A stretch of DNA of 64,000 bases, from assembly GCA_020746875.1 (NCBI GenBank), contig JAGTJL010000002.1, forward strand, positions 806,001 to 870,000, in the 5' to 3' direction. Source of the stretch: Rhexocercosporidium sp. MPI-PUGE-AT-0058. Taxonomy: Eukaryota; Ascomycota; Leotiomycetes; Helotiales. A model generated the notes under the pieces. That model ran no database searches. It had not been told where the DNA came from and saw only the letters and a list, made by a program, of their open reading frames with translations. The position numbers were made by a program, and so were the translations under genes. Of this stretch, positions 6,666 through 64,000 are shown piece by piece (the stretch's first letter is position 1; each line of letters opens with the position of its first letter).

Positions 6666-9600
6666 ATGCGTCTTTTGGCACGCAAAAACGACGGCGAGTT
6701 CGCCCTTACCAAGGACATCATCGATAACATTCCCAACTATGCTATACTATCGCACACATGGGGCGCGGATACAGAGGAGGTCACCTTCAGAGACCTGGCG
6801 GATGGCACGGGCAAGGACAAGACTGGCTACGACAAGATTCGACTCTGTGGAGAACAAGCTAGGCATGATGGCATACAATACTTTTGGGTGGATACATGCT
6901 GTATCGACAAGTCAAACAACACTGAGCTTGCAGAGGCTATCAACTCCATGTTCCGCTGGTATCGCCATGCGGCCAAATGCTATGTCTACCTGTCAGATGT
7001 TCCAAGGGATGCACCTGACGATGCATTCTGCCAGCTGCCCTGGGAATCGGCATTTCGTCAAAGCAGATGGTTCACTCGGGGCTGGACACTTCAAGAGCTC
7101 ATTGCCCCAAAATCAGTTGAATTCTTTTCCAAATACTGGAAACAACTGGGTGACAAGGCATCCTTAGGGACTATTATCCACGAGATAACAGGAATTCCGG
7201 ACGAAGCACTTCAAGGAGTTTCGCTCTCGGATTTCAGCGTGGCCGAGCGAATGTCGTGGGCAGAACGACGTGTGACTACCCGCAAAGAAGACCAGGCATA
7301 TTCATTACTCGGTATTTTTGATGTGTATATGCCACTGATCTATAGCGAAGGGAAAGAGCATGCATTCAAACGACTTCGAGAGGTGATTGATGTGAATTCA
7401 AGGGGTAAATAGACCTTTCGTTTGAGGTTGTGTCTTCGTTTGTAAATGCCGGTACTGATCGGCAAGCCAGGGCTCCATTCGGATGTATTTCAACGCCTAC
7501 CGTATGCACTCGATGCACCATTTAACTCGTTTGCAAAACAAGATTCGTCCACTTGCCTACCGAATACCCGAGTTGGCCTTCTTGAAGAGATATACAACTG
7601 GGTTGATAGTGAAGATGACCGGTGTATCTTCTGGCTTAATGGCTTAGCTGGTACTGGGAAATCAATAATTGCTCGGACCGTCGCCCGCAGATACTTTGAA
7701 CAAAAGCGCCTCGGCGCTAGCTTTTTCTTCTCAAGAGGCGGAGGAGATGTCAGCCATGCTGGTAAATTCTTCACGAGCATTGCTGTGCAGCTTGCGCATA
7801 ACGCACCATCGTTTGGACGATTCATTTCGGAAGCTGCCGAAGAACAGATTGATATTGCAAATCAGTCCCTCCGTGACCAGTGGCAGCAGCTCGTCCTTAA
7901 TCTACTGTCAAGGTTAGACACACGCTTTTCCCCGTCTTCCTATTTGCTCATTGTCGATGCCCTCGATGAGTGTGATAACGAAGACCATATTCGCACAATT
8001 CTGCAGCTTCTAGCTGAAGCTCGATCGTTGACGATAGTACGACTTCGAGTCTTTGTGACGAGCAGACCTGAAATTCCCATTCGACACGGGATATGCGCTA
8101 TCCTACAAGCCAAACACCAGGACTTCGTACTGCACAGTATACCGCTAACGATTATTAATCATGATATCTCTTTCTTTCTAGAATACAATCTGAGAACGAT
8201 CGGGCAAGAGTGGACACTTGGAGCTCATTGGCCCGGCGAGGAAGTTCTGAGATAGCTGGTTCTATATGCTAATAGCCTCTTTATCTGGGCGGCAACGGCT
8301 TGTCGCTTTATTCGTGAAGGAAAGGGGCGATTCGCACGCAAGCGACTGGATACAATTCTCAAGGGTAGTAGTAGCGCTATTACCGCACCAGAAAAGCACT
8401 TTAACGAGATCTACCTTGCTGTTCTCAAGTACTCGATCTCCTCTGACTTTTCGGACGAAGAGAAAACGGAGGTATGCGATGTGTTGAAACATGCACTCGG
8501 AAGTCTAGTAGTATTGCTCTTACCTCTTTCTACCTCTTCATTGAGTAGGCTATTACAGCTCTCAAGAGAAGATGTCGACTTGACATTTGAGAATCTTCAT
8601 GCAATCCTTGATATTCCAGATAACCCGACTCGCCAGCTCCGCCTACACTACCTTTCATTCCGCGATTTTCTCCTTAATAAAGATCGATGTGGGGACTTCT
8701 GGGTAGATAAGAAGGAGGCATACCAGCTATTAGCTATTAGCTGTATACAGCTAATGTCCTAGGCACTTAAGAAGGACATTTGCGGCATGCATGCTCCTGG
8801 TAGTCAAGCCAGCCAAGTTGAGAGCAGCCGTCTGCAGGGATGCCTTCCGCCTGATATTCAATACGCATGCCTTTATTGGGTTCAGTATCTGTATCGGAGT
8901 GGTTCTCATGCTTGCGACGGCGAGGCAGCCTACCGGTTTCTGTAATCTCATCTACTACACTGGCTTGAGGCCCTTGGGTGGATGGGCAAGATATTAGAAG
9001 GAATTCAAGCAATATTATCTCTAGAGGCTCATGTTTCGGTAAGCTTTCTGACTATTGTTTACAGGAGTGTAATTAACTTGTCCTTAGGCTAATGAAAGTC
9101 CTAATTTGCACGCGTTTATACATGATGCGAGGCGGTTCGTCGTATATAATCGATCAGTTATTGAATAAACGCCCTTTTAATCATATTGTTCAGCATTAGT
9201 CTTTAGCCCAGAGAAGAGTCTTGTTCGGGTAGCATTTGAGAAGTGTATCCCAGATTGGATTTTGCAGAAACCAAAAGTGCAAGCATACTGGAATGCGCTG
9301 CTGCAGACGCTCGAGGGACACACGGAGTCGGTCAGTTCTGTAGCCTTCTCACCTAACGGCAAGCAGGTCGTGTCTGGGTCTTACGATAACACAGTGCGGC
9401 TCTGGGACGCCGTAACAGGAGCGCCGCTGCAGACGTTCGAGGGACACACGGAGTCGGTCAGTTTTATAGCCTTCTTACCGAACGGCAAGCAGGTCGTGTC
9501 TGGGTCTCATAACAATACAGTGCGGCTCTGGGACGCCGCGACAGGAGCGCCGCTCCAGACTCTCGAGGGCCACTCGCAGTCGGTTTATACTGTAGCCTTC

Positions 9601-11184
9601 TCACCCGACGGCAAGCAGGTCGTGTCTGGGTCTCGCGATAATACAGTTCGGCTCTGGGACGCTACGACAGGAGCGCCGCTGCAGACGCTCGAGGGACACA
9701 CGGAGTCGGTCAGTTTTATAGCCTTCTTACTTAACGATAAGCAGGTCGCGTCTGGGTCTCATGATAATATAGTGCGGCTTTGGAACGCTGCGACAGGAGC
9801 GCCGCTCCAGACGCTCGAGAGCCACTCGCAGTCGGTTAGTTCTGTAGCTTTCTCACTTAACGGCAAGCAGGTCGTGTCTGGGTCTTACGATAATATAGTG
9901 CGGCTCTGGGACGCCGCGACAGGAGCGCCGCTCCAGACGCTCGAGGGACATACGGAGTCGATCAGTTCTGTAGCCTTCTTACTTAACGGCAAGCAGGTCG
10001 TGTCTGGGTCTCACGATAATATAGTGCGGCTCTGGGACGCCGCGACAGGAGCGCCGCTGCAGACGCTCGAGAGCCACTCGCAGTCGGTCAGTTCTATAGC
10101 CTTTTCACCCAACGGCAAGCAGGTCGTGTCTGGGTCTTACGATAATACAGTGCGGCTGTGGGACGCCGCGACAGGAGCGCCGCTCCAGACGCTCGAGAGC
10201 CACTCGGACTCGGTCTATATTATAGCTTTCTTACCTAACGGCAAGCAGGTCGTGTCTGGGTCTCACGATAATACAGTTCGGCTCTGGGACGCCGCGACAG
10301 GAGCGCCGCTGCAGACGCTCGAGGGCCACTCGCACTCAGTTTATTCTATAGCCTTCTCACTTAGCGGCAAGCAGGTCGTGTCTGGGTCCTGGGATAATAT
10401 AGTTCGGCTCTGGGACGCCGCGATAGGAGCGCCGCTTCAGACGTTCGAGGGCCACTCGGACTCGGTCTGCTCTGTTGCTTTCTCACCTGGCGGCAAGCAG
10501 GTCGTATCTGGGTCCTAGGATAACACAATTCGGCTCTAGGACGCTGCGACAGGAGCGCCGCTGCAGACGCTCCAGGGCCACTCGCACTCAGTCTATTCTA
10601 TAGCCTTCTCACCTAGCGGCAAGCAAGTCGTATCTGGGTCCTAGGATAACACAGTTCGGCTCTGGGACGCCGCGACAGGAGCGCCGCTCCAGACGCTCGA
10701 GGGCCACTCGCACTCGGTCAGTTCTGTAGCCTTCTCACCTAACGGCAAGCAGGTCGTATCTGGATCCTAGGACAAGATAATACGGCTCTGGGACGCCACG
10801 ATAGGGGCGCCGCTCCAGACGTTCGAGGGCCACTCGCAGTCGGTCAGTTCTATAGCCTTCTCACCCAACGGCAAGCAGGTCGTGTCTGGGTCTTACGATA
10901 ACACAGTGCGGTTGTGGGACGCCGCGACAGGAGCGCCGCTCCAGACGCTCGAGGGCCACTCGGACTCGGCCTATTCTGTAGCCTTCTCACCTAACGGCAA
11001 GCTGCTACCAACTTTGCGTGTATCAAATCATTGGATAATAGATGGCACTGCGAATATTCTCTGGCTACCTTCTGAATACCGACCTACATGTAAAGCTGTT
11101 CGGGATAAAACCCTCGTTCTAGGACATTCGTCAGGGAATATTTCATTCCTCCAGTTTAAACAAGGGCCAAAGCTTATAATGTGA
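6666..11184 (+). pseudogene. NLR1: HET-NACHT-WD40 gene with nine in-frame stops
   Basis: The exons 6666-7404, 7471-9038 and 9088-11184 keep one frame, with introns of 66 and 49 nt. The HET domain (AILSHTWG, YFWVDTCCIDKS, FTRGWTLQELIAP) is followed by a NACHT NTPase with Walker A GLAGTGKS and Walker B LLIVDALDEC, a helical linker, then WD40 repeats from 9301. Stops lie at 8253, 8760, 8943, 9166, 9178, 10516, 10537, 10642 and 10768. All are TAA or TAG, and where relatives allow a comparison they replace Gln or Trp. Known: such proteins (Podospora HET-E, HET-D, HET-R) trigger incompatibility cell death. The HET plus NACHT part up to 8253 stays open and could give a truncated protein, but the full receptor is dead. 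The 3' flank resembles that of NLR2, so the genes share ancestry beyond the coding part. Confidence 0.9.
9301..11010 (+). repeat. WD40 tandem repeat of NLR1, 14 units of 126 bp
   Basis: Units start every 126 bp (42 codons) from 9301 to 10939. The last unit is cut after SPNGK and followed by a conserved C-terminal tail (TLRVSNHW, LWLPSEYRPTC). Fourteen units would make two seven-bladed propellers. DNA is nearly identical between units except at a few codons (after GH, and around SGS-x-D). Units 10, 11 and 12 contain TAG in place of TGG. Confidence 0.92.
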
Positions 11185-15436: not shown

Positions 15437-18400
15437 ATGGCGACGAGTTCTTCCGACATTTTCGATAGCGGGAGGCATCATGGTGAATATCGGAGAGTAA
15501 GTGCTATAGTCTGAAAAATCATCTGTTACTAATAACAATAATAATATAGGAGGTAAGTAGTTGTAGTGTCGAGAACAGAGAGAAGAGAATCGCTGACCGT
15601 GGGCGTCTTGGTGGTCACTTTAGAGTGTAAGTAGCAGCAGTGTCGAGAACAGAGAGAAGAGAGTCGCTGACTGCAGGCGTCTTGGTGATGATTTTAGGGT
15701 GTAAGTAGTAGTAGTGTCGAGAATAGAGAGAAGAGAATCGCTAACTATAGGCGTCTTGGTGGTGATTTTAGCGTGTAAGTAGTGGCAGTGTCGAGAATAG
15801 AGAGAAGAGAGCCGCTGACCGCAGGCGTCTTGGTGATGATTTTAGGGTGTAAGTAGTAATAGTGTCGAGAATAGAGAGAAGAGAATCGCTAATTGCAGGC
15901 GTCTTGGTGGTGATTTTAGCGTGTAAGTAGTGGCAGTGTCGAGAATAGAGAGAAGAGAGCCGCTGACCGCAGGCGTCTTGGTGGTGATTTTAGTATATAA
16001 GTAGCAGCAGTGTCGAGAACAGCGAGAATCGAGAATAGAGAAGAGAGAGTCGCTGACCGCAGGCGTCTTGGTGGTGATTTCAGTTTGTAAGTAGTAGCAG
16101 TGTCGAGAACAGAGAGAAGAGAGCCGCTGACCGCAGGCGTCTTGGTGGTGATTTTAGTATGTAAGTAGCAGCAGTGTCGAGAACAGCGAGAATCGAGAAT
16201 AGAGAAGAGAGAGTCGCTGACCGCAGGCGTCTTGGTGGTGATTTCAGGAAGTAAGTAGTAGCATTGCCGAGAAGAGAGAGAAGACAGTCGCTGACCGCAG
16301 GCGTCTTGGTGGTGATTTCAGTGGGTAAGTAGTAGCAGTGTCGAGAACAGAGAGAAGACAGCCGCTGACCGCAGGCGTCTTGGTGGTGATTTCAGGAAGT
16401 AAGTAGTAGCATTGCCGAGAATAGAGAGAAGAGAGTCGCTGACCGCAGGCGTTTTGGTGGTGATTTTAGGAAGTAAGTAGCAGCATTGCCGAGAAGAGAG
16501 AGAAGAGAATCGCTGACCGCAGGCGTCTTGGTGGTGATTTCAGGAAGTAAGTAGCAGCAGTGTCGAGAACAGCGAGAATCGAGAACAGAGAGAAGAGAGT
16601 CGCTGACCGCAGGCGTCTTGGTGGTGATTTCAGCGTGTAAGTAGCAGCAGTGTCGAAAATAGAGAGATGAGAGTCGCTAACTGCAGGCGTTTTGGTGGCG
16701 ATTTTAGCGTGTAAGTAGCAGTATTGCCGAGAAGAGAGAGAAGAGAGTCGCTGACCGCAGGCGTCTTGGTGGTGATTTCAGGAAGTAAGTAGCAGTATTA
16801 CTGAAAATAGAGAGATGAGAGTTGCTAACTGCAGGCGTTTTGGTGGTGATTTTAGCGTGTAAGTAGCAGTATTGCCGAGAAGAGAGAGAAGAGAATCGCT
16901 GACCGCAGGCGTTTTGGTGGTGATTTTAGGAAGTAAGTAGCAGCAGTGCCGAGAACAGAGAGAATAGAGAGAAGAGAGTCGCTGACCGCAGGCGTCTTGG
17001 TGGTGATTTTAGCGTGTAAGTAGCAGCAGTGTCGAGAATAGAGAGATGAGAGTCGCTAACTGCAGGCGTCTTGGTGGTGATATTAGCGTGTAAGTAGTAG
17101 TAGTGTCGAGAACAGATATAAGAGAGAAGAGAATCGCTGACCGCAGGCGTTTTGGTGGTGATTTCAGTATGTAAGTAGCAGCAGTGCCGAGAACAGAGAG
17201 AATAGAGAGAAGAGAGTCGCTGACCGTAGGCGTCTTGGTGGTGATTTCAGGAAGTAAGTAGCAGCAGTGTCGAGAATAGCGAGAATCGAGAACAGAGAGA
17301 AGAGAGTCGCTGAGCGCAAGCATCTTGGTGGTGATTTTAGGCAGTAAGTAGTAGTAGTGTCGAGAATAGAGATAACACAGAGAATAGAATCGCTGACCGC
17401 AGGCGTTTTGGTGGTGATTTCAGTATGTAAGTAGCAGCAGTGCCGAGAACAGAGAGAATAGAGAGAAGAGAGTCGCTGACCGTAGGCGTCTTGGTGGCGA
17501 TTTTAGGAAGTAAGTAGCAGCAGTTGTCGAGAACAGAGAGAAGAGAGTCGCTAATTTTATGTCTTAGGAAGTATGTATGATAGGTTAACCTGGTAACATG
17601 GCTAATTGGTATTTTAAAAACTTTTCTAGGCGGTAAGTTAGCCTATACACTTTTCCATATCATTCAATGCATATGTAGATTAAAAATTACAGAAAGCCAA
17701 GAACAAATGGACCCACTCGCCTGACAGCAAAATCCGGTTGGATTTGTCTTCAAAATTATGCAATCGCTGTCGCACGATCGACCTAGGGACCTATCTCTCT
17801 TCGTTACCTTATCCAGAGAACAGCTGTGATCTGTGTCAGATCCTCTCCAAAATCCCCGAGGAGGCTAGGAACAAAAATCCCGAAATTCGGCTGTCTGAAG
17901 CTTCGCAATACGTAAGGATTCGTGCTGTACCAGGTCTGTGCTCTGCTTTGCTGTGCTGGATAGATGCTAATACTATGTAGAGTCTAACCTGAAACACAGA
18001 CTTTCTAGATTTCTACAACATATCTCCAAATCCAAAGATAAATTTAGAAGCTCGCTCCATTGGGAACTAATCAGGGAATGGATTCGAATATGTGACGAAG
18101 GCCAATGCTCGCGAAGCGGTGGATGCTGTCCTGATCCCGATAGAAGTCGGATGCCAACCCGAGTCATTGATGTGGGAGATGGCTACACTGCGCGCCTTGT
18201 TTCGACAGTCGAAGAAAACATGAGTGAAGGTGCGCAATACATTGCTCTGTCCCATTGCTGGGGACTCCCGAAAGAACAGACAGACAAGTGGTGTACTACT
18301 ACCAGCAACAAGAATGATAGGAGGATGCAAGGATTCCCAATTACAGAATTGCCACAGACATTTCAAGATGCCATCAACGTCACTCGAGAACTCGGCCAGC

Positions 18401-19665
18401 GATATCTCTGGATCGATTCGCTCTGCATTATTCAAGGAGAGGGCGGAGACTGGGCTACTGAAGCTACGAAGATGGAAGCAGTCTTCAAGAATGCTTACTG
18501 TACGATAGCTGCCACCTCTGCTAAAAACTCAACCGAAGGATTTCTCGACCGGCTGGAAGAGAAAGGATCGCAATATGTGATGGTGCCCAAGTCCTCACTT
18601 GGCAAAGTCTACGTTTGCACATCGATTGATGAAGACTTCAATGGCGACGTGATGGAGGGGATCTTGAATAGACGGGCATGGGTGCTACAGGAACGAGCCT
18701 TGTCACGCCGAACGATCCATTTCACGAAGAGCCAAACTTACTTCGAGTGCGGCGGTGGGATACGTTGCGAAACGCTCACTCATATGAAGAAGTAAGTCTA
18801 CATCTAGGGCTTGGTGTTTTAAGTACCACTTTTCAATCCGCTTCTCCTTATTTGTAATCGAGCATTTACCGAAACATACCTACTAATTTCTAATCAAATC
18901 AGCGCGAACTTGTCATTTCAAAGTGACCCAGAATTTCCTCGCTCTATCAAAAGTCGTTATTTGTCTGCTCAAATACAGCTCTTCCAATCTCTCTTCGCAA
19001 ATTACTCGACATTTGGCATTACACATCCCACAGACAGGCCCGTTGCGATTAAGTCACTAGCTGAGGCGTTGGCTAAAACTCTCGATACCGTGGTCTACTA
19101 TGGGATCTTCAAATGCTTCCTCCACCGAAGTCTCATGTGGCAACCGGCACAGAATGCTTCGCTGGAGAAGATAGATTATAAGGATAATAAGATGCCTCCA
19201 TCGTGGTCTTGGATGGTATATCACGGGCAGATCCAGTATTTGCAATTGGAAACTGGAGAAGTTGAGTGGGATCATAGTGTTCAATTTATGGACGACAAGC
19301 CGAGCGACTCGGGTACTAGCTCTGATAATCATAGGTATGTCTTGGAAGCTCGGGTGAGACGACTGCGAGATTGCAAGATCAACTCCGAGGGCGTTATACT
19401 CGACGATGCGGACAAGAAAGTCGGGCTTGTACACTTTGATACTCAACCAGGGAGCTTCCTACCAGAGATAGTTTGTGCTATCATGGGAAGAGAGACTAGA
19501 GGTTATGGTGATGTTGATGGTTCGCCACGGAAATATTACGTGCTATTTTTGACAGAAGGTGCGATGCAACTAGGGCGCGGAACATTTACGAGGGTTGGAA
19601 TGGGTTGGATCCAGCAACGTTTTCTGCTTCTTGGTGATCAAGTCGATACGGCACGGATCCTCTAG
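15437..19665 (+). CDS. HET-domain protein with 28 single-codon exons
   Basis: Exon 1 is 15437-15496 (20 codons). Then come 28 exons of 3 nt, starting at: GAG 15550, AGT 15624, GGT 15698, CGT 15772, GGT 15846, CGT 15920, TAT 15994, TTT 16084, TAT 16158, GAA 16248, TGG 16322, GAA 16396, 16470, 16544, CGT 16634, 16708, GAA 16782, CGT 16856, GAA 16930, CGT 17013, 17087, TAT 17168, GAA 17251, GCA 17341, TAT 17424, GAA 17507, 17568 and GCG 17630. The last exons are 17693-17933, 17981-18791 and 18903-19665. The total is 1959 nt with one stop, giving 652 aa. Residues 21-48 are rich in Glu, Arg and Tyr. Cys71, 74, 93 and 96 form two CxxC pairs. The HET domain starts at YIALSHCWG (about 215) with YLWIDSLCIIQ (about 270) and RAWVLQERALSRR (about 361). 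The HET part is certain. The microexons are inferred from splice signals and frame. Skipping any or all of them also keeps the frame. Confidence 0.85.
15553..17570 (+). repeat. Tandem array of intron-plus-codon units
   Basis: Twenty-six tandem introns lie here, mostly 71 nt, with variants of 78, 80 and 87 nt and a last of 58 nt. Adding the 3 nt that follow makes a unit of about 74 bp. Each starts GTAAGT (one starts ATAAGT at 15997), has GCTGAC, GCTAAC or GCTAAT about 28 nt before its end, and ends in TTTTAG, TTTCAG or close variants. Unit length is not a multiple of three and the size differences are not either, as expected for introns. Two further, non-repeat introns follow at 17571-17629 and 17633-17692 and keep the same 3-nt spacing. 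Confidence 0.95.
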
Positions 19666-28273: not shown

Positions 28274-31200
28274 ATGCGTCTGCTACAGTACAACAACGAT
28301 GGCGATTTTAGCCTGACCGAGTTCAATGAGAGCGATCTACCTGAGTATGCTATACTCTCGCACACATGGGAACAGGATAATAGCAAGGAAGTCACATATG
28401 CGGAAGTGATAAGCGGGACTGGCCAGGATAAGGAGGGTTTTAAGAAGATTAGGTTCTGTGGAGCACAGGCTAGACAAGATGGTCTACCATACTTTTGGGT
28501 TGATACCTGCTGTATTAACAAGCAAAACAAGGCCGAACTCAGGTACTCTATCAACTCCATGTTCCGTTGGTATCGCAATGCAAGTCGATGTTATGTCTAT
28601 TTGTCGGATGTTTCGACAAGGAAGGGAAAAGCAAGTGATCAGTCGTCAGAGCATACTTGGGACTTGAGCTTTCGGGAGAGCAGATGGTTCACTCGAGGCT
28701 GGACACTCCAAGAGCTCCTTGCCCCAGCTTCGGTGGAGTTTTTCTCCTTCGAGGGCAATCGACTTGGTGACAAGAGCTCTCTCCAGAAGCAAATCTGCAA
28801 AGCAACAAACATTTCACCCTCTGCGCTCCAAGCAAAATCGTTATCTCAGTTTCACATCGATGAGCGAATGCAGTGGATTGAACATCGAGAAACGGGTCAA
28901 GAGGAGGATAAAGCGTACTCGTTGCTGGGCATCTTCGGTGTCTCTATGGTCCCTGCCTATGGTGAAGGAGTCGCGAAAGCATTCGATCGGCTGTGGAATA
29001 GATTTCGCGAAATACAGAAATGTATGCAAGACTTACGGCCCACCGATCCCCGTCTAGATAAGGAACGTATCGAGGCCGCCAAAGGAGGGTTACTACAGGA
29101 GGCTTACCAATGGGTGATAGAAACCTCCGACTTTCAACAATGGCGTACTAATCAACACAATCGGTTACTGTGGATCAAGGGCGACCCTGGGAAGGGCAAG
29201 ACAATGTTGCTTTGCGGTATTGCCGATGAACTACAGAATTCGTTGGCCAAGTCTGCACTTCTGTCGTACTTCTTTTGCCAGGCCACCGATTCCCGGATTA
29301 ACCGTGCCACAGCTGTGCTACGAGGTCTGATTTATCTACTAGTCGACCAGCAGCCATCTCTCGTCTCGCATGTGCAAGCGAGTTACGATCAAGCTGGCAA
29401 GGCACTCTTTGAAGATGCGAATGCCTGGGTTGCTTTGACTAAGGTTTTCTCTAGCATTCTACACGATCCGAATCTAGTTGCGACTTATTTGATTATCGAT
29501 GCCCTCGATGAATGCGTAGTCGACTTGCTAAATTTATTATGTTTTATCGCGCAGACTTCGTCCGTATCCACTCGCGTTAAATGGGCAGTCTCTAGCCGCA
29601 ACTGGCCAGAAATTGAGAAGACGCTCGGCACCGCAATGCAGAAGCAAAGGCTATGTCTCGAGCTGAATGCAGATTCCGTCTCTACTGCCGTTGCGACTTT
29701 CATTCAAACTAAAGTTCACGATCTAAGAGAGAAGAACAAATATACGAGCGAGGCACGAGACGTTATCCAGCAACATCTTTCGCTGAACGCACATGGTACT
29801 TTTCTCTGGGTGGCGTTAGTCTGCCAGGAGCTGTCGAATCTTTCAGGGTGGAAAGCCATCCAGAAGTTGAAAGCCTTGCCGCCTGGACTCGATGCACTCT
29901 ACCAGCGGATGATGGATCAAATCAAGGCGTCAGAGGATTCTGAGCTGTGTATGAATGTTCTGGCTGTCGTGTCGACTGTGTATCGACCCATCACAATTGA
30001 CGAGCTAGTGACTTTAGTGAAGATGCCCAATGGAGTTGATGGCGAATATGAAGCTCTAGCAGAGATCATAGGTTATTGCAGATCTTTTCTCGCAATCCGA
30101 GAGCGCACCATTTTTTTCGTACACCAGTCAGCAAAGGACTTTTTAATTGGAAAGGCACCTCAAGATCCACTTCTCCTCAGAGCACAAGACTTGCATAACT
30201 CTATCTTCTCTCGATCACTGCAAGTCATGTCCATAATACTACGGCGTGATATTTATAATCTAAGGGCTCCTGGGATTTCTATCGACCAAGTAGAACCGCC
30301 TGATCCTGATCCCCTCGCCGCCTTAAGGTACTCTTGTCTTTACTGGGTCGATCATTTACTCGGAAGTCGAATTACAAAAGATGCAGTCAAGAACCTTGAG
30401 GCCAGTAGCTCGGTTTATAATTTCCTCCACCAGTACTACTTGTACTGGCTTGAGGCGCTGAGCCTGTTGAAAAGCGTGTCAGAAGGCGTAGTTATGATTC
30501 GGAAGCTCGAGAATCTTCAGGTACGTCTTTGTGTAGTCTCATCGTTTTCGGATTATCCTAACATAAACAAGCTTGATAGAAGTCCTGATCTGCGTGCGTT
30601 TATACAAGATGCAACGCGGTTTGCCATATCCACCCGATCAGTTATTGAACAGGCGCCTCTTCAAGCATATTGTTCGGCTCTTGTCTTTGCTCCAGAGAAG
30701 AGTATTATTCGAGAAACGTTCGAGACATGTGTTCCGCATTGGATCCTGAGAAAGCCTAGGGTAGAAGCACATTGGAGTGCGACGCTTCAAACACTGGAGG
30801 GTCATTCTAGCGGGGTCTTGTCTGTGGCCTTCTCCCCGGACGGCAGGCAGGTCGTATCGGGCTCTTACGACAAGACGGTACGGCTCTGGGACGCAGCGAC
30901 AGGAGCCTTACAGCAGACGCTCGAGGGCCATTCTGGCGACGTTACGTCCGTGGCCTTCTCTCCGGACGGCAAGCAGGTCGTATCGGGCTCTTGGGACGAG
31001 ACGCTACGGCTCTGGGACGCAGCGACAGGAGCCTTACAGCAGACGCTCGAGGGCTATTCTGGCTACGTCACGTCCGTGGCCTTCTCCCCGGACGGCAAGC
31101 AGGTCGTATCGGGCTCTTACGACAAGACGCTACGGCTCTGGGACGCAGCGACAGGAGCCTTATAGCAGACGCTCGAGGGCCATTCTGGCTGGGTCACGTC

Positions 31201-31912
31201 CGTGGCCTTTTCCCCGGACGGCAAGCAGGTCGTATCGGGCTCTTGGGACGAGACGGTACGGCTCTGGGACGCAGCGACAGGAGTCTTACAGCAAACGCTC
31301 GATGGCTATTCTGGCGACGTTACGTCCGTGGCCTTTTCCCCGGACGGCAAGCAAGTCGTATCGGGGGCTCACGACAAGACGGTACGGCTCTGGGACGCAG
31401 CGACAGGAGCCTTACAGCAAACGCTCGAGGGCCATTCTGGCGACGTTACGTCCGTGGCCTTCTCCCCGGACGGCAAGCAGGTCGTATCGGGCTCTAACGA
31501 CGAGACGCTACGGCTCTGGGACGCAGCGACAGGAGCCTTACAGCAAACGCTCGAGGGCCATTCTGGCAGGGTTACGTCCGTGGCCTTCTCCCCGGACGGC
31601 AAGCAGGTCGTATCGGGCTCTTGGGACGAGAGGCTACGGCTCTGGGACGCAGCGACAGGAGCCTTACAGCAGACGCTCGAGGGCCATTCTGGCTACGTCA
31701 CGTCCGTGGCCTTCTCCCCAGACGGCAAACACATTCCGACCTTACACGTATCTGATGAATAGCTAGTAGAAGGTACTGCTAGGTATCTCTGGCTACCTAC
31801 TAACTATCGACCTACTTGTGAAGCTGTATGGGACAGGATTGTGGTTTTAGGGCATTCGTCAGGGAGATTATCATTTCTTCAGATTCGACCAGGGCTAAAC
31901 CAACTAATATGA
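28274..31912 (+). CDS. NLR2: HET-NACHT-WD40 protein with two WD40-region stops
   Basis: The frame is open from 28274 to TAG at 31163 (946 aa with a 51-nt phase-0 intron at 30521-30571 removed). Beyond it, the same frame continues to TAG 31760 and TGA 31910. The HET domain spans about residues 1-230 (YAILSHTWEQ, YFWVDTCCINKQ, FTRGWTLQELLAP). NACHT has Walker A GDPGKGKT at 303-310 and Walker B LIIDALDEC at about 404-412. A helical linker leads to eight WD40 units of 126 bp from 30784. Three precede the first stop. Both stops fit Gln (CAG) and Trp (TGG) changed by C-to-T or G-to-A. Known: HET-NACHT-WD40 receptors drive incompatibility when the WD40 sensor meets its target. Whether this copy works with three blades is unknown. 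The intron is in frame, so read-through is also possible. Confidence 0.88.
30784..31735 (+). repeat. WD40 tandem repeat of NLR2, 8 units of 126 bp
   Basis: The LE codon pair recurs at 30793 and every 126 bp to 31675. Units are nearly identical in DNA. Variable residues are the one before Val in SG-x-V (G, D, Y, W, D, D, R, Y) and those around SGS-x-D-x (Y/K, W/E, H/K, N/E). The eighth unit is cut after SPDGK and followed by the conserved tail. Confidence 0.92.
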
Positions 31913-60803: not shown

Positions 60804-63800
60804 ATGCGTCTGCTGCAGTGCGACAACGATGGCGACCTCAGCTTGACTGAGTTCGTTGAGAACGACATCCCGAAATATGCTATACTTTCACACACATGGG
60901 AAGGAGAGGAGGTCACCTTTGAAGATCTACAGAATAGGACCGGCACGACGAAGGCTGGCTACGAGAAGATACGGTTCTGCGCAGAACAGGCTACGCGGGA
61001 TGGCCTGCGATTCTTTTGGGTGGACACCTGCTGCATTGATAAATCAAATAGCGCTGAGCTTACAGAAGCTATCAACTCTATGTTTCGCTGGTACCGCATG
61101 TCGACTAAATGCTATGTCTATCTGCCAGATGTATCCAGAACTGCGGTTAATACTGATGAACTGGCCTGGGAATCAGCGTTTCGGAAATGTAGATGGTTCA
61201 CTCGAGGCTGGACCCTTCAAGAGCTTCTTGCTCCGACATCAGTTGAATTCTTCTGCCGGGAATCCAAGCGGATTGGTAGTAAGAGCTCTTTAGAGCAGCA
61301 AATTCACGAGATCATAGGAATCCCTAAGTCGGCACTTCAAGGAGCCAATTTGTCGCAGTTTAGCGATAAGGAACGATTTTCATGGATTCAACCCCGCCAG
61401 ACTAAGGTCGAAGAAGATAAAGCGTATTCGTTACTCGGTATTTTTGACGTCCAAATCCCCCTCCGTTATGGCGAAGGGATGGCGAATGTATTCAAACGGC
61501 TCGAAGAGGAAATCGACAAGTTTAACAAGTGCCTCCAAGACCTACGCCTTAGCGATCCCCGCGATGATAAGACGCGTATTGAGAACACCAAGGGTGGCTT
61601 GCTAAAGGGCTCATATATCTGGGTCCTAGAGACCTCCGATTTCCAACAATGGCGGAACAACCCGCAGACTTGGCTGCTATGGATCAGAGGAGATCCCGGC
61701 AAGGGCAAGATAATGTTGCTCTGCGGCATTATCAACGAGCTGAAGAAGTCTATACCGAAGTCGACTCTTCTATCATATTTCTTCTGTCAAGCGACCGAAT
61801 CTCGAATTAACAACGCCAAGGCCGTGCTACGAGGTCTGATCTACCTGCTTGTCAATGAACAGCCGTTTCTTATCTCGCATGTACGGAAGAAGTACGATCA
61901 TGCCGGCAGAGCGCTATTCGAGGATTCAAATGCCTGGGTTGCTTTATCCGAAATTTTTGTCAATATTCTACAAGACCCTAAATTGAATAGTGCGTGCTTA
62001 ATTGTCGACGCGCTCGACGAATGCGAAGTGGATTTGCCGAAATTGTTGGACCTTATCGTACAGACTTCGTCTATATCTCCTCGGACCAAGTGGATTGTTT
62101 CTAGTCGCAACTGGCCTAGCATCGAGAAGGATCTTGATAGAGCAACGCAGAAAGCAAGCATGTGTCTTGAGCTGAACGAAAAGTCCGTTTCCGCAGCCGT
62201 CATTACATACGTCGAATCCAAGGTAAATTGGTTAGCAGAGCGACAAGAATACGATACGGATACCCGAGACGCTGTCCGGCGTTACTTGTCCTCAAATGCA
62301 AACGGCATATTTCTCTGGGTTGCTTTGGTTTGCCAAGAACTCGCCGTTATCTTAGGATGGGAGGTTGAAGAAATGTTGTCAGCGTTTCCCTCCGGACTTG
62401 ATGCCCTTTATATGCGGATGATGAAGCAGATCAGCACTTTAAGGACAGCTAAACGCTGCCAAAGTATATTGGCCGTTGTCTCGGTTATATACCGGCTTAT
62501 TATACTAGACGAGCTGCCTTCTTTTGTCGATATGCCACTACGAAGTTCTAGTAATTACAAGGCTTTAGCAGAGATTATAGGACATTGTGGCTCTTTTCTC
62601 ACACTTCGAGATTGTACTATTTTTTTTGTCCATCAGTCTGCTAAGGACTTCTTGATCAATAAGGCTCTTAATATTGTCTTTCCTTCTGGGATAGCCGATA
62701 TTCATTACGTTATGTTCTCGCGGTCGCTACAAGCCCTGCGTACGGTATTACGGTGCGATGTCTATAGCCTAAGGGCTCCCGGTATCTCTATCGAACAAGT
62801 TAAGCAGCCCCATCCTGATCCGCTCGCTGCGGTACGGTACTCCTGTCTTTACTGGGTAGATCATCTCTTCGAATGTCGAATTAGAGAAGATATAATCAAG
62901 GATCTTAAGGACAGCGGCTTAGTCTACCGTTTCCTTCGCCAGTATTTCTTGTACTGGCTTGAGGCGTTGAGCCTGTTGAGAAGCGTGTCAGAATGCGTAG
63001 TTATGGTTCGGAAGCTCGAGGATCTTCTGGTATATTTCAATGTATCTTCTCTTCCCGTTATTAGAGATACTTACTAAAATCAATCAGTTCGTTGACAGTC
63101 CGAATTTACATGATTTTGTACATGATGCGAGGCGTTTTGCCGTATCCAACCGATCAATTATTAAACAGGCGCCTTTACAAGTATATTGTTCTGCTCTTGT
63201 CTTTGCCCCAGAGAAGAGCATTGTTCGAAAAACCTTCGAGAAGTGTATTCCGTCTTGGATCCAGAGAAAGCCTAGAGTAGAAACACATTGGAATGCGATG
63301 CTACAAACACTCGAGGGCCATATTAGTAGGGTCACTTCCGTGGCCTTCTCCCTCGACGGCAAGCAGATTGTATCGGGGTCTGACGATACGACGATCCGGC
63401 GCTGGGACGCGGCTACAGGCTAGCAGCTGCTACCGGCCTTTGAGTGCCATACTAGTTCGGTTACCTCTATGGCCTTCTCCCCCGACGGCAAGCAGATCGT
63501 GTCTGGGTTAAGCGATAAGACTGTCCGGCGCTGGGACGCAGCTACGGGACAGCAGCTGCTGCCAGCCCTTAAGGGCCATACTGAGAGGGTTACCTCCGTG
63601 GCTTTCTCCCCCGACGGCAAGCAGATCGTGTCGGGGTCAGGCGATACGACGATCCGGCGCTGGGACGCGGCTACAGGCTAATAGCTGCTGCCAGCCCTTA
63701 AGGGCCATACTAATTGGGTCACCTCTGTGGCTTTCTCCCCCGATGGCAAGCAGATCGTATCGGGGTCTTGGGATATAATGGTCCGGCGCTGGGACGCGGC

Positions 63801-64000
63801 TACTGGCCAGCAGCTGCTGCCAGCCTTTGAGGGCTATACTAGTTGGGTCACCTCTGTGGCTTTCTCCCCCGACGGCAAGCAGATCGTATCGGGGTCTTGG
63901 GATACGACGATCCGGCGCTGGGACGCGGTCACAGGAGCACTGCTGCAGACGCTCGAGAGCCATACTGACTCGGTCTTGTCTGTGGCCTTCTCCCCCGACG
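60804..64000 (+). CDS. NLR3: HET-NACHT-WD40 protein, 3' end outside window
   Basis: Exons 60804-63029 and 63088 to beyond the window; the intron (63030-63087) is 58 nt with GTATAT and ATCAG. The start at 60804 is the position homologous to NLR2; an upstream Met at 60633 is in the same frame but lies in the element spacer. The HET domain has YAILSHTWEG, FFWVDTCCIDKS and FTRGWTLQELLAP. NACHT Walker A reads GDPGKGK followed by Ile303 where Thr is expected (ATA at 61710). Walker B is LIVDALDEC. WD40 units follow from about 63310, with TAG at 63421, TAA at 63679 and TAG at 63682 in place of Gln. The uninterrupted protein is 853 aa with one blade. Paralogue of NLR2, with the same role inferred. The altered P-loop makes full function doubtful. 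Confidence 0.87.
63310..64000 (+). repeat. WD40 tandem repeat of NLR3, mostly 129-bp units
   Basis: The His (or Tyr) codon of the GH motif recurs at 63319, 63448, 63577, 63706, 63835 and 63961. Spacing is 129 bp (43 codons), then 126. Variable residues precede Val (SRV, SSV, ERV, NWV, SWV, DSV) and surround SGS-x-D. The array leaves the window. Confidence 0.9.

What the first reader, a model, noticed from the sequence alone, without database searches (positions are those of the whole stretch)
15437..17700. HET gene whose N-terminus is encoded by 28 one-codon exons
Between a 20-codon first exon and the HET-domain exons lie 29 introns, each separated from the next by exactly 3 nt. Nearly all have a GTAAGT donor, a CTGAC/CTAAC branch site and a TTTTAG or TTTCAG acceptor. 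Every intron is phase 0. Joining all 28 triplets gives no stop and lands in frame in the HET exon at 17693, making a 652-codon gene with one stop. The resulting segment has 10 Glu, 7 Arg and 4 Tyr out of 28. The array is a tandem repeat, so each duplication of the unit adds one intron and one amino acid. I know of no described gene built like this, though 3-nt exons do occur elsewhere.
Basis: partly seen in the sequence, partly recalled or inferred. Interest (0 to 1): 0.97.

Follow-up and report, generated by a model that had tools for sequence, protein, structure and literature searches.

The report
HET gene with one-codon exons
In a fungal genome, a HET-domain gene carries 28 three-base stretches, each flanked by intron-like sequence, so that each would likely add one amino acid to the protein; unrelated genes of the same genome show the same design, which would let the fungus vary such proteins one residue at a time.

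Summary
Between exon 1 (15437-15496) and the HET exons (17693-19665) lie 28 in-frame triplets separated by intron-like stretches; one of 28 donors is broken. The joined frame gives 652 codons and one stop.

It is more than a repeat that happens to look spliced. The same genome holds arrays of the same anatomy with unrelated introns: a second HET gene (36 triplets), an ankyrin NLR gene (48, with a 2-triplet paralog) and a secreted Cys-rich gene (32). Of exon lengths 2, 3, 4 and 6, only 3 exceeds the control (146 matches against 3). Triplets are the most or nearly the most variable positions, are rich in transversions, and hold no stop in 159 repeat-unit triplets. Donors decay less than comparable sites. 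In the 2-triplet NLR the two residues restore the exact 33-residue ankyrin spacing (31 without).

My searches listed no report of them in HET or secreted genes. No RNA was available, so splicing itself is inferred.

The parts
15437..15496 (+). exon 1, MATSSSDIFDSGRHHGEYRR, ends in phase 0 at GTAAGT
   Evidence: recognisable at paralogous loci C4, C23 and C58 (start codon lost in C58) and in Leptodontidium protein P0002 (MATSSSNFLVSRRHHGVYWKE)
15497..15549 (+). first intron (not a repeat unit)
15550..15552 (+). first one-codon exon, GAG
   Evidence: GAG also first at the three paralogous loci
15553..17567 (+). array: 25 repeat introns (71-87 nt) and a shortened last one (58 nt), separated by 3-nt triplets
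15994..16002 (+). triplet TAT with broken donor ATAAGT; would be skipped in frame
17568..17570 (+). one-codon exon GAA before a non-repeat intron (17571-17629)
   Evidence: GAA at the same place in C4, C23, C58, with the acceptor decayed to AA in C23 and C58
17630..17632 (+). last one-codon exon GCG before a non-repeat intron (17633-17692)
17693..17933 (+). HET gene exon, KAKNKWTHSPDS...
   Evidence: in-frame TAA 12 bases upstream and no in-frame Met before residue 138 of this part, so an upstream exon is needed for this region
17981..18791 (+). HET gene exon with the HET domain PF06985
18903..19665 (+). last HET gene exon and stop

Best explanation
The array is a run of complete short intron-like units separated by 28 one-codon stretches that are predicted to be spliced one after another, so that the codons would add a variable segment of up to 28 residues near the N-terminus of a HET-domain protein. 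Inferred mechanism: each 71-87 nt unit carries its own donor, branch site and acceptor and would be removed by ordinary intron definition. Because every junction is phase 0, gain, loss or skipping of any unit changes the protein by one residue and never shifts the frame. Unequal exchange between the near-identical units would change the number and order of codons (shown: 28, 15, 11 and 4 triplets at four paralogous loci, the shared flanking GAG, GAA and GCG/GCA included; higher-order periods in TRF). Selection then seems to keep splice signals and to favour amino-acid change in the codon (shown: low donor decay, transversion-rich and mostly non-synonymous triplets, no stops in 159). The likely use is diversification of a recognition surface, as proposed for the codon-sized microexons of truffle NACHT-ANK receptors; for the HET protein this use is untested.
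For: 1) Same anatomy with unrelated intron sequence elsewhere in this genome: B, ankyrin NLR gene on C1, 48 triplets; C, another HET gene on C12, 36; D, secreted Cys-rich gene on C20, 32. Each continues a coding exon in phase 0 into an in-frame downstream exon. 2) Only length 3 exceeds control: 146 matches vs 3, clustered in these arrays; length 2: 2 vs 4; 4: 2 vs 7; 6: 3 vs 3. 3) Triplet columns: pi .70/.60/.53 vs intron mean .107 in the window array. Polymorphic columns with a transversion: 15 of 16 in triplets vs 48 of 173 in introns, Fisher p=2e-7 over six arrays. 0 stops in 159 repeat-unit triplets. 4) Donor G after T lost in 1 of 105 cells vs transition at 116 of 1049 other TpG/CpA cells, p=2e-4, five arrays; p=.007 without D. 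5) NLR paralog L014: its two triplets make all four T-x-L spacings 33; without them the last is 31. 6) Window and C4 HET copies are open over 652 and 639 aa, dN/dS 0.47 over 602 codons of the shared exons. 7) Exon 1 is conserved in Leptodontidium P0002, whose annotated N-terminus reads like a translated unit. 8) Precedent in Tuber melanosporum NACHT-ANK genes, as cited.
Against: No RNA or peptide data. The annotated C4 protein P0001 starts inside the last intron (MKKIQ...) and omits the array; that in-frame ATG exists in C4, not in the window. In C4, C23 and B the triplet is not strictly the most variable 3-base window (2 of 67, 4 of 67 and 1 of 68 windows equal or exceed it). Units are related by descent and three of the six arrays are paralogs (C23 is decayed), so the p-values are not exact. 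Expected stops under column independence are only 2.1 (window), 0.7 (B), 1.5 (D) and 0 in the other three arrays. The assembled D peptide found no homologue and no Pfam family. One window donor is broken.
Confidence: 0.78

Rival explanations
1. One long intron: the spliceosome joins 15496 directly to 17693 (2196 nt) and never includes a triplet; the array is a minisatellite that grew from an intron and so carries splice signals by descent.
For: Database annotation of the paralog and of two close homologues leaves the array out (P0001, P0003, P0004). 3-nt exons are hard to define sterically (general knowledge).
Against: Does not explain why the codon is hypervariable and transversion-rich, why internal donors resist decay, why unrelated arrays have 3-nt exons, or the 33-residue ankyrin register of L014. 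It needs introns of 1.1-3.6 kb, while the two ordinary introns of this gene are 47 and 111 nt.
Confidence: 0.1
2. Combinatorial skipping: the array is spliced, but each transcript keeps a different subset of codons, so one gene gives many N-termini; the window gene is a post-transcriptional diversifier rather than a fixed 652-aa protein.
For: All junctions are phase 0, so every subset keeps the frame. Alternative splicing of such exons is what is reported for the truffle genes. The broken donor after 15994-15996 implies at least one skip.
Against: Donor and acceptor signals are nearly uniform in the arrays, which would favour full inclusion; no transcript data.
Confidence: 0.4
3. The HET protein starts downstream, at the Met of MPTRVIDVGDG (residue 138 of the part after 17693), and exon 1 and array are not part of it.
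For: That start leaves the HET domain whole (domain from residue 215 of 652); Cadophora P0003 is annotated from this Met.
Against: The region before that Met is conserved in homologues (LCNRCRTIDL...CDLCQIL), and exon 1 is recognisable at four paralogous loci and in P0002.
Confidence: 0.08
4. The triplet is hypervariable by a mutational process at the DNA level, with no coding meaning.
For: Tandem repeats mutate and convert often; in B one 3-base intron window is as variable as the triplet, in C4 two and in C23 four.
Against: The third base is T in 12 of 12 (C4), 8 of 8 (C23) and 41 of 47 (B) and T/C in 35 of 35 (C) while the first two vary; triplets are transversion-rich, introns transition-rich. 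Among 22 recognisable junctions of the decayed array E one triplet is a stop and 14 acceptors are lost.
Confidence: 0.06

Closest known systems
Codon-sized (3-bp) microexons of the nank (NACHT-ANK) NLR genes of Tuber melanosporum (Iotti et al. 2012, not held; seen through passages of PMC4986451, PMC3689799, PMC10197012, PMC9815663)
   Same: Dozens of 3-bp exons in one gene; proposed diversification of a recognition protein; array B and its paralog here are in NTPase/ankyrin NLR genes.
   Different: The window array is in the N-terminal part of a HET-domain gene in which no NACHT or ankyrin was found, and D is in a secreted Cys-rich gene. The fungus appears to be a Rhexocercosporidium, not a truffle. 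Here alternative splicing is not shown.
Fungal NLR WD/ANK/TPR repeats with high internal conservation (Dyrka et al. 2014, PMC4986451, abstract and passages)
   Same: Near-identical tandem units, length polymorphism, diversifying selection at a few codons, concerted evolution.
   Different: There the unit is a coding repeat of tens of codons; here the unit is an intron plus one codon.
Micro-exon genes of schistosomes (recalled; listings, a reference)
   Same: Many very short exons of multiples of 3 that can be skipped in frame.
   Different: Exons are longer and not in tandem arrays of near-identical introns (recalled).
Stwintrons of ascomycetes (listing and abstract starts)
   Same: Successive splicing of adjacent introns in fungi.
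   Different: In stwintrons one intron interrupts a splice element of another; here each intron is complete.
Introners (abstract start of PMC9860276)
   Same: Multiplication of near-identical introns.
   Different: Introners are scattered in many genes; this unit was found only at four paralogous loci.

Membership tests
HET-domain proteins (PF06985) | HET domain above the Pfam cut-off | tested here: met
   106.9 bits vs cut-off 22.5, residues 215-366
T. melanosporum-type nank genes with codon-sized microexons | many exons of exactly 3 bp in one gene | tested here: met
   28 by sequence and splice signals; exon status inferred
T. melanosporum-type nank genes with codon-sized microexons | gene encodes NACHT plus ankyrin repeats | tested here: not met
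   window gene: only HET found at E<=0.001. Array B gene: ankyrin families and NPHP3_N found; its paralog L014: NPHP3_N and, below cut-off, NACHT
T. melanosporum-type nank genes with codon-sized microexons | alternative splicing of the 3-bp exons in transcripts | not testable with these tools
   no RNA data
Stwintrons | a splice element of one intron is interrupted by another intron | tested here: not met
   24 of 25 repeat introns of the window have an uninterrupted GT donor and 25 of 25 an AG acceptor
Introners | near-identical introns dispersed in unrelated genes | tested here: not met
   unit found at C12, C4, C23 and C58 only, all paralogous HET loci; the search scores only best candidates, so a very diverged copy could be missed
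NLR repeats with high internal conservation | the tandem unit is itself translated | tested here: not met
   all three + strand frames of the array are closed (55-61 stops, longest open stretch 36 codons)

The most novel reading that the evidence does not exclude
One-codon-per-intron arrays are a general diversity device of filamentous ascomycetes: they arise again and again from unrelated introns, at fixed sites in unrelated proteins (HET N-terminus, tip of an ankyrin hairpin, mature part of a secreted Cys-rich peptide), and build hypervariable segments in which each residue is a separately movable and skippable genetic unit, comparable in role to the variable loops of immune receptors.
Probability: 0.4. 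Interest if true: 0.93.

Novelty: new variant of a known kind. Interest (0 to 1): 0.8.

Why it matters
Protein segments in which every residue is its own exon have one published family that my searches turned up, truffle NACHT-ANK genes. Finding the same design with unrelated introns in HET genes and in a secreted peptide gene of another fungus suggests that it arose repeatedly and is selected. It would give fungi a frame-proof way to lengthen, shorten and shuffle a segment one amino acid at a time, in DNA and perhaps in RNA. It also means that gene annotation can miss or truncate such genes, as database proteins P0001 and P0128 suggest here. It is directly testable by long-read RNA sequencing.

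Tried and rejected
Homologues of the assembled secreted peptide D: no candidate shared three words. PDB: one weak Cys-rich match, E=2. Pfam: none. Other donors in arrays: GTATGT 4 vs 3 control, GTGAGT 2 vs 2. The other gap ranges gave 49 vs 9 and 72 vs 4 and included matches that are simple repeats or a dispersed element, not arrays (such as C12:3918xxx, C17, C46, C56, C60). Translation straight through the array was rejected: + strand frames are closed. Stwintron and introner readings were rejected. A phase-1 start for gene C was rejected on inspection of the sequence, because it gives a stop within the triplets; the phase-0 ATG at L013 2695 was used. My first intron model of the HET exons was wrong and was corrected. 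The count 'AG acceptors 1 of 32' for D is a trailing-gap artefact; searches give 32 of 32. Dropped rows: the AGA (end of exon 1, C23 and C58) and TGC (C12, C23) matches are not array triplets; one of 23 fuzzy junctions (394996) was left out as a chance match, and the fuzzy pattern misses badly decayed units of array E. Paper searches. No listed paper names such arrays in HET or secreted genes by title or abstract start; lists were capped (15 of 16; 10 of 51), only open-licence papers are held, and Iotti et al. 2012 is not held.

Full report
WHAT IS IN THE SEQUENCE. Exon 1 (15437-15496) encodes MATSSSDIFDSGRHHGEYRR and ends in phase 0 at GTAAGT. Up to the exon at 17693 there are 28 triplets, each preceded by AG and followed by a donor-like hexamer: GTAAGT in 26, GTATGT in 1, ATAAGT in 1. 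The 25 repeat introns are 71 nt (16), 78 (1), 80 (4) or 87 (4). All 25 end in TAG or CAG, and 24 of 25 have a branch-like YTRAY. The first intron and the last two have sequences of their own, and the one before 17568 is a shortened unit of 58 nt with a different 3' end. The joined gene is 652 codons with one stop and a HET domain. The stretch upstream of 17693 has an in-frame TAA and the next in-frame Met is at residue 138 downstream, so the first part of the HET region needs an upstream start.

PARALOGS IN THE SAME GENOME. The repeat unit was found at four loci (the tool scores only best candidates), all copies of the same HET gene. Numbers of triplets, with the shared GAG, GAA and GCG/GCA counted: window 28, C4 15 (EPPPPRLPDPHHPEA), C23 11, C58 4. 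(One search also prints AGA, the last codon of exon 1, for C23 and C58, and a chance TGC for the window and C23; these are not counted.) So the array differs in length while its flanking triplets are shared. C4 is open (639 aa); dN/dS between window and C4 over 602 codons of the HET exons is 0.47. C23 and C58 are decayed: 5 and 22 stops in tblastn pieces, which in C58 may run across an intron.

UNRELATED ARRAYS OF THE SAME ANATOMY. A genome-wide pattern, two consecutive donor-NNN-AG junctions with 46-76 bases between, gives 146 matches against 3 for the reversed control pattern; only the first part of the list is shown, and the matches shown fall almost wholly in a few arrays. Neighbouring gap ranges give 49 vs 9 (63-93) and 72 vs 4 (31-61). 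These reveal arrays whose introns are not alike: B on C1 (unit 73, 48 triplets), C on C12 (unit 67, 36 triplets), D on C20 (unit mostly 68, 32 triplets, of which the last, AAG, may simply begin the last exon), a two-triplet relative of B on C1 (L014), and a decayed array E on C16 (unit 71, 22 recognisable junctions) in front of a further HET copy (tblastn 61% over residues 104-350 of the HET part). B continues an ankyrin exon (...EVEYWYNP) into an in-frame ankyrin exon (TPLMRAVERG...) that ends the protein; Pfam finds ankyrin repeats and an NPHP3_N domain in the upstream part. C joins MSEILTRWKSLLVRQRWREALFV to ASRQWQYTIDNEF... of a HET gene (HET); I did not model that gene to its end. D follows MKLFIVLSLALGALAFSSPNVMDRENHALAKRQ, which looks like a signal peptide and a Kex2-type KR site (by recall of such sites), and its triplets give CGTRPICFRGQCPRGCACVECGCIPGDPGCAK, 8 Cys in 32. 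A paralog of D on C19 encodes a Cys-containing region in one exon and ends at an intron that begins like the D introns. The similarity there lies mainly in the signal and pro part, so it is weak support.

CONTROLS ON EXON LENGTH. With the same donor and acceptor pattern, length 2 gives 2 matches vs 4 control, length 4 gives 2 vs 7, length 6 gives 3 vs 3. Length 3 with GTATGT donors gives 4 vs 3 and with GTGAGT 2 vs 2. Other lengths were not tested.

VARIATION. Pairwise diversity of the three triplet columns vs the intron mean: window .70/.60/.53 vs .107; C4 .17/.64/0 vs .041; C23 .64/.75/0 vs .136; B .53/.67/.23 vs .112; C .68/.68/.51 vs .119; D .75/.66/.48 vs .178. As a 3-base window the triplet beats every intron window in the window array, C and D; in C4, C23 and B, 2 of 67, 4 of 67 and 1 of 68 intron windows are at least as variable. 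Transversions make up .50-.81 of pairwise differences in triplets and .13-.35 in introns. By columns, 15 of 16 polymorphic triplet columns and 48 of 173 polymorphic intron columns hold a transversion (p=2e-7; with alleles seen at least twice 11 of 14 vs 21 of 120, p=7e-6). Distinct codons and residues per array: window 8 and 8; C4 5 and 5; C23 5 and 5; B 9 and 9; C 9 and 7; D 15 and 13. There are 0 stops in 159 repeat-unit triplets; under column independence 4.3 would be expected. In C4, C23 and C the third base is T or C in 12 of 12, 8 of 8 and 35 of 35, in B in 41 of 47, in the window in 15 of 25, in D in 23 of 32; NNY codons can never be stops. Donor G after T is lost in 1 of 105 cells of the five arrays other than C23, while other TpG/CpA cells of the same introns show the transition in 116 of 1049 (p=2e-4). 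With the last columns trimmed the figures are 1 of 105 vs 111 of 973 (p=1e-4), without D 1 of 83 vs 82 of 880 (p=.007), without D and C4 1 of 72 vs 78 of 773 (p=.01). In the decayed array E, 8 of 22 acceptors and 14 of 22 donors remain and one triplet is a stop. The units are related by descent and the A arrays (window, C4, C23) are paralogs, so these p-values are guides, not exact.

ANKYRIN REGISTER. In L014 the two triplets code D and R. The spacing between the T-x-L motifs is 33, 33, 33, 33 with them and 33, 33, 33, 31 without, and Pfam Ank starts at the residue coded by the second triplet. In B the 48 residues would form an insertion at this hairpin (spacing 79, against 31 without). Of the 12 database proteins found with the L014 C-terminus, 3 hold NYWY, from Cladorrhinum (P0124), Botrytis (P0126, marked partial) and Beauveria (P0128), and all 3 end or lose the ankyrin frame within a few residues of it. 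This suggests, without proving, that the site is split in those genera too. One of the 12, P0121 of Trichoderma, has the same KLDRTPLLRAV in one piece; the word search favours such a match, but it shows the microexon residues to be normal ankyrin residues.

HOMOLOGUES OF THE WINDOW GENE. The best database protein, P0001 (609 aa), lies on a contig of 2,270,726 bases, the length of contig C4, equals my C4 model from DAKNKW to the end and is named Rhexocercosporidium sp. MPI-PUG.... From this I infer the organism. It starts inside the last intron and lacks the array. P0002 from Leptodontidium covers exon 1, and its annotated N-terminus EVSSSNIENRKKRVADRRRLG reads like a translation of the repeat unit (EVSSSSVENREKRVADRRRLG), so the unit likely exists in another genus. 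In an alignment of 17 N-termini (window, C4 and 15 of the 120 listed homologues) the stretch between the HGEY-like motif and the W motif is short in P0008 (Fusarium) and long in P0010 and P0018, so it is length-variable in other genera too. Whether microexons are involved there is unknown.

WHAT IS KNOWN. Dyrka et al. 2014 (PMC4986451, passages), Bidard et al. 2013 (author name recalled; PMC3689799, passage), a 2023 review (PMC10197012, passages) and a 2022 survey (PMC9815663, passages) state that NACHT-ANK (NLR) genes of Tuber melanosporum hold many 3-bp microexons whose alternative splicing can diversify the receptor; all cite Iotti et al. 2012, which is not held. Array B belongs to that kind of gene. 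The window gene does not (no NACHT, no ankyrin found), but it is built in the same way. A 2024 paper (PMC11121469, abstract and passages) reports a functional microexon in Trichoderma virens Xlr2. I found no paper on such arrays in HET or secreted genes (ten searches, listed in Tried and rejected; open-licence papers only, mostly seen as listings).

HOW IT MOST LIKELY WORKS. Shown: complete intron signals per unit, frame-neutral codons, length and sequence differences between copies, maintained donors, hypervariable codons. Inferred: serial splicing of short introns, inclusion of most or all codons, unequal exchange as the source of length change, and a recognition role. The rival of combinatorial skipping is compatible with everything here and would be the more striking version.

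Noticed in passing
window 9295-11002, 30820-31728, 63313-64000: Three arrays of 126-129 bp units, 83-92% matches in TRF, that read like WD-repeat units (recalled motif), the high-internal-conservation type known from fungal NLRs.
   Followed up: no
G000 C19:4088 (L018): Paralog of secreted gene D with an internally repeated Cys-containing region (CANGGVPPACGCPNGGVPPGCESPP and a near copy) in one exon, ending at an intron that starts like the D array introns.
   Followed up: partly
proteins P0017 (Diaporthe) and P0018 (Fusarium solani): Annotated N-termini contain repeated LLTLVVFGDI-like pieces, which could be translated ends of tandem introns; a lead for arrays in other genera.
   Followed up: no
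protein P0121 (Trichoderma breve): An ankyrin protein with KLDRTPLLRAV in one piece, the same residues that in L014 would come from two exons and two one-codon exons.
   Followed up: partly
L016/L031, G000 C16:395476-399240: Decayed one-codon array in front of a further HET copy, with an unrelated 71-nt unit; 14 of 22 recognisable acceptors read AA.
   Followed up: partly
L010 and L011 (C23, C58): HET copies with stops and transition-rich decay of the kind expected from repeat-induced point mutation (by eye); flanks look similar over long stretches, so larger segments may have been duplicated.
   Followed up: partly
window 15997-16002: One donor of the array is ATAAGT instead of GTAAGT; a natural test of in-frame skipping.
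   Followed up: no
P0001 vs window 17677-17692: C4 has an in-frame ATG in the last intron (MKKIQ) used by its annotation; the window lacks it and has an in-frame TAA.
   Followed up: partly
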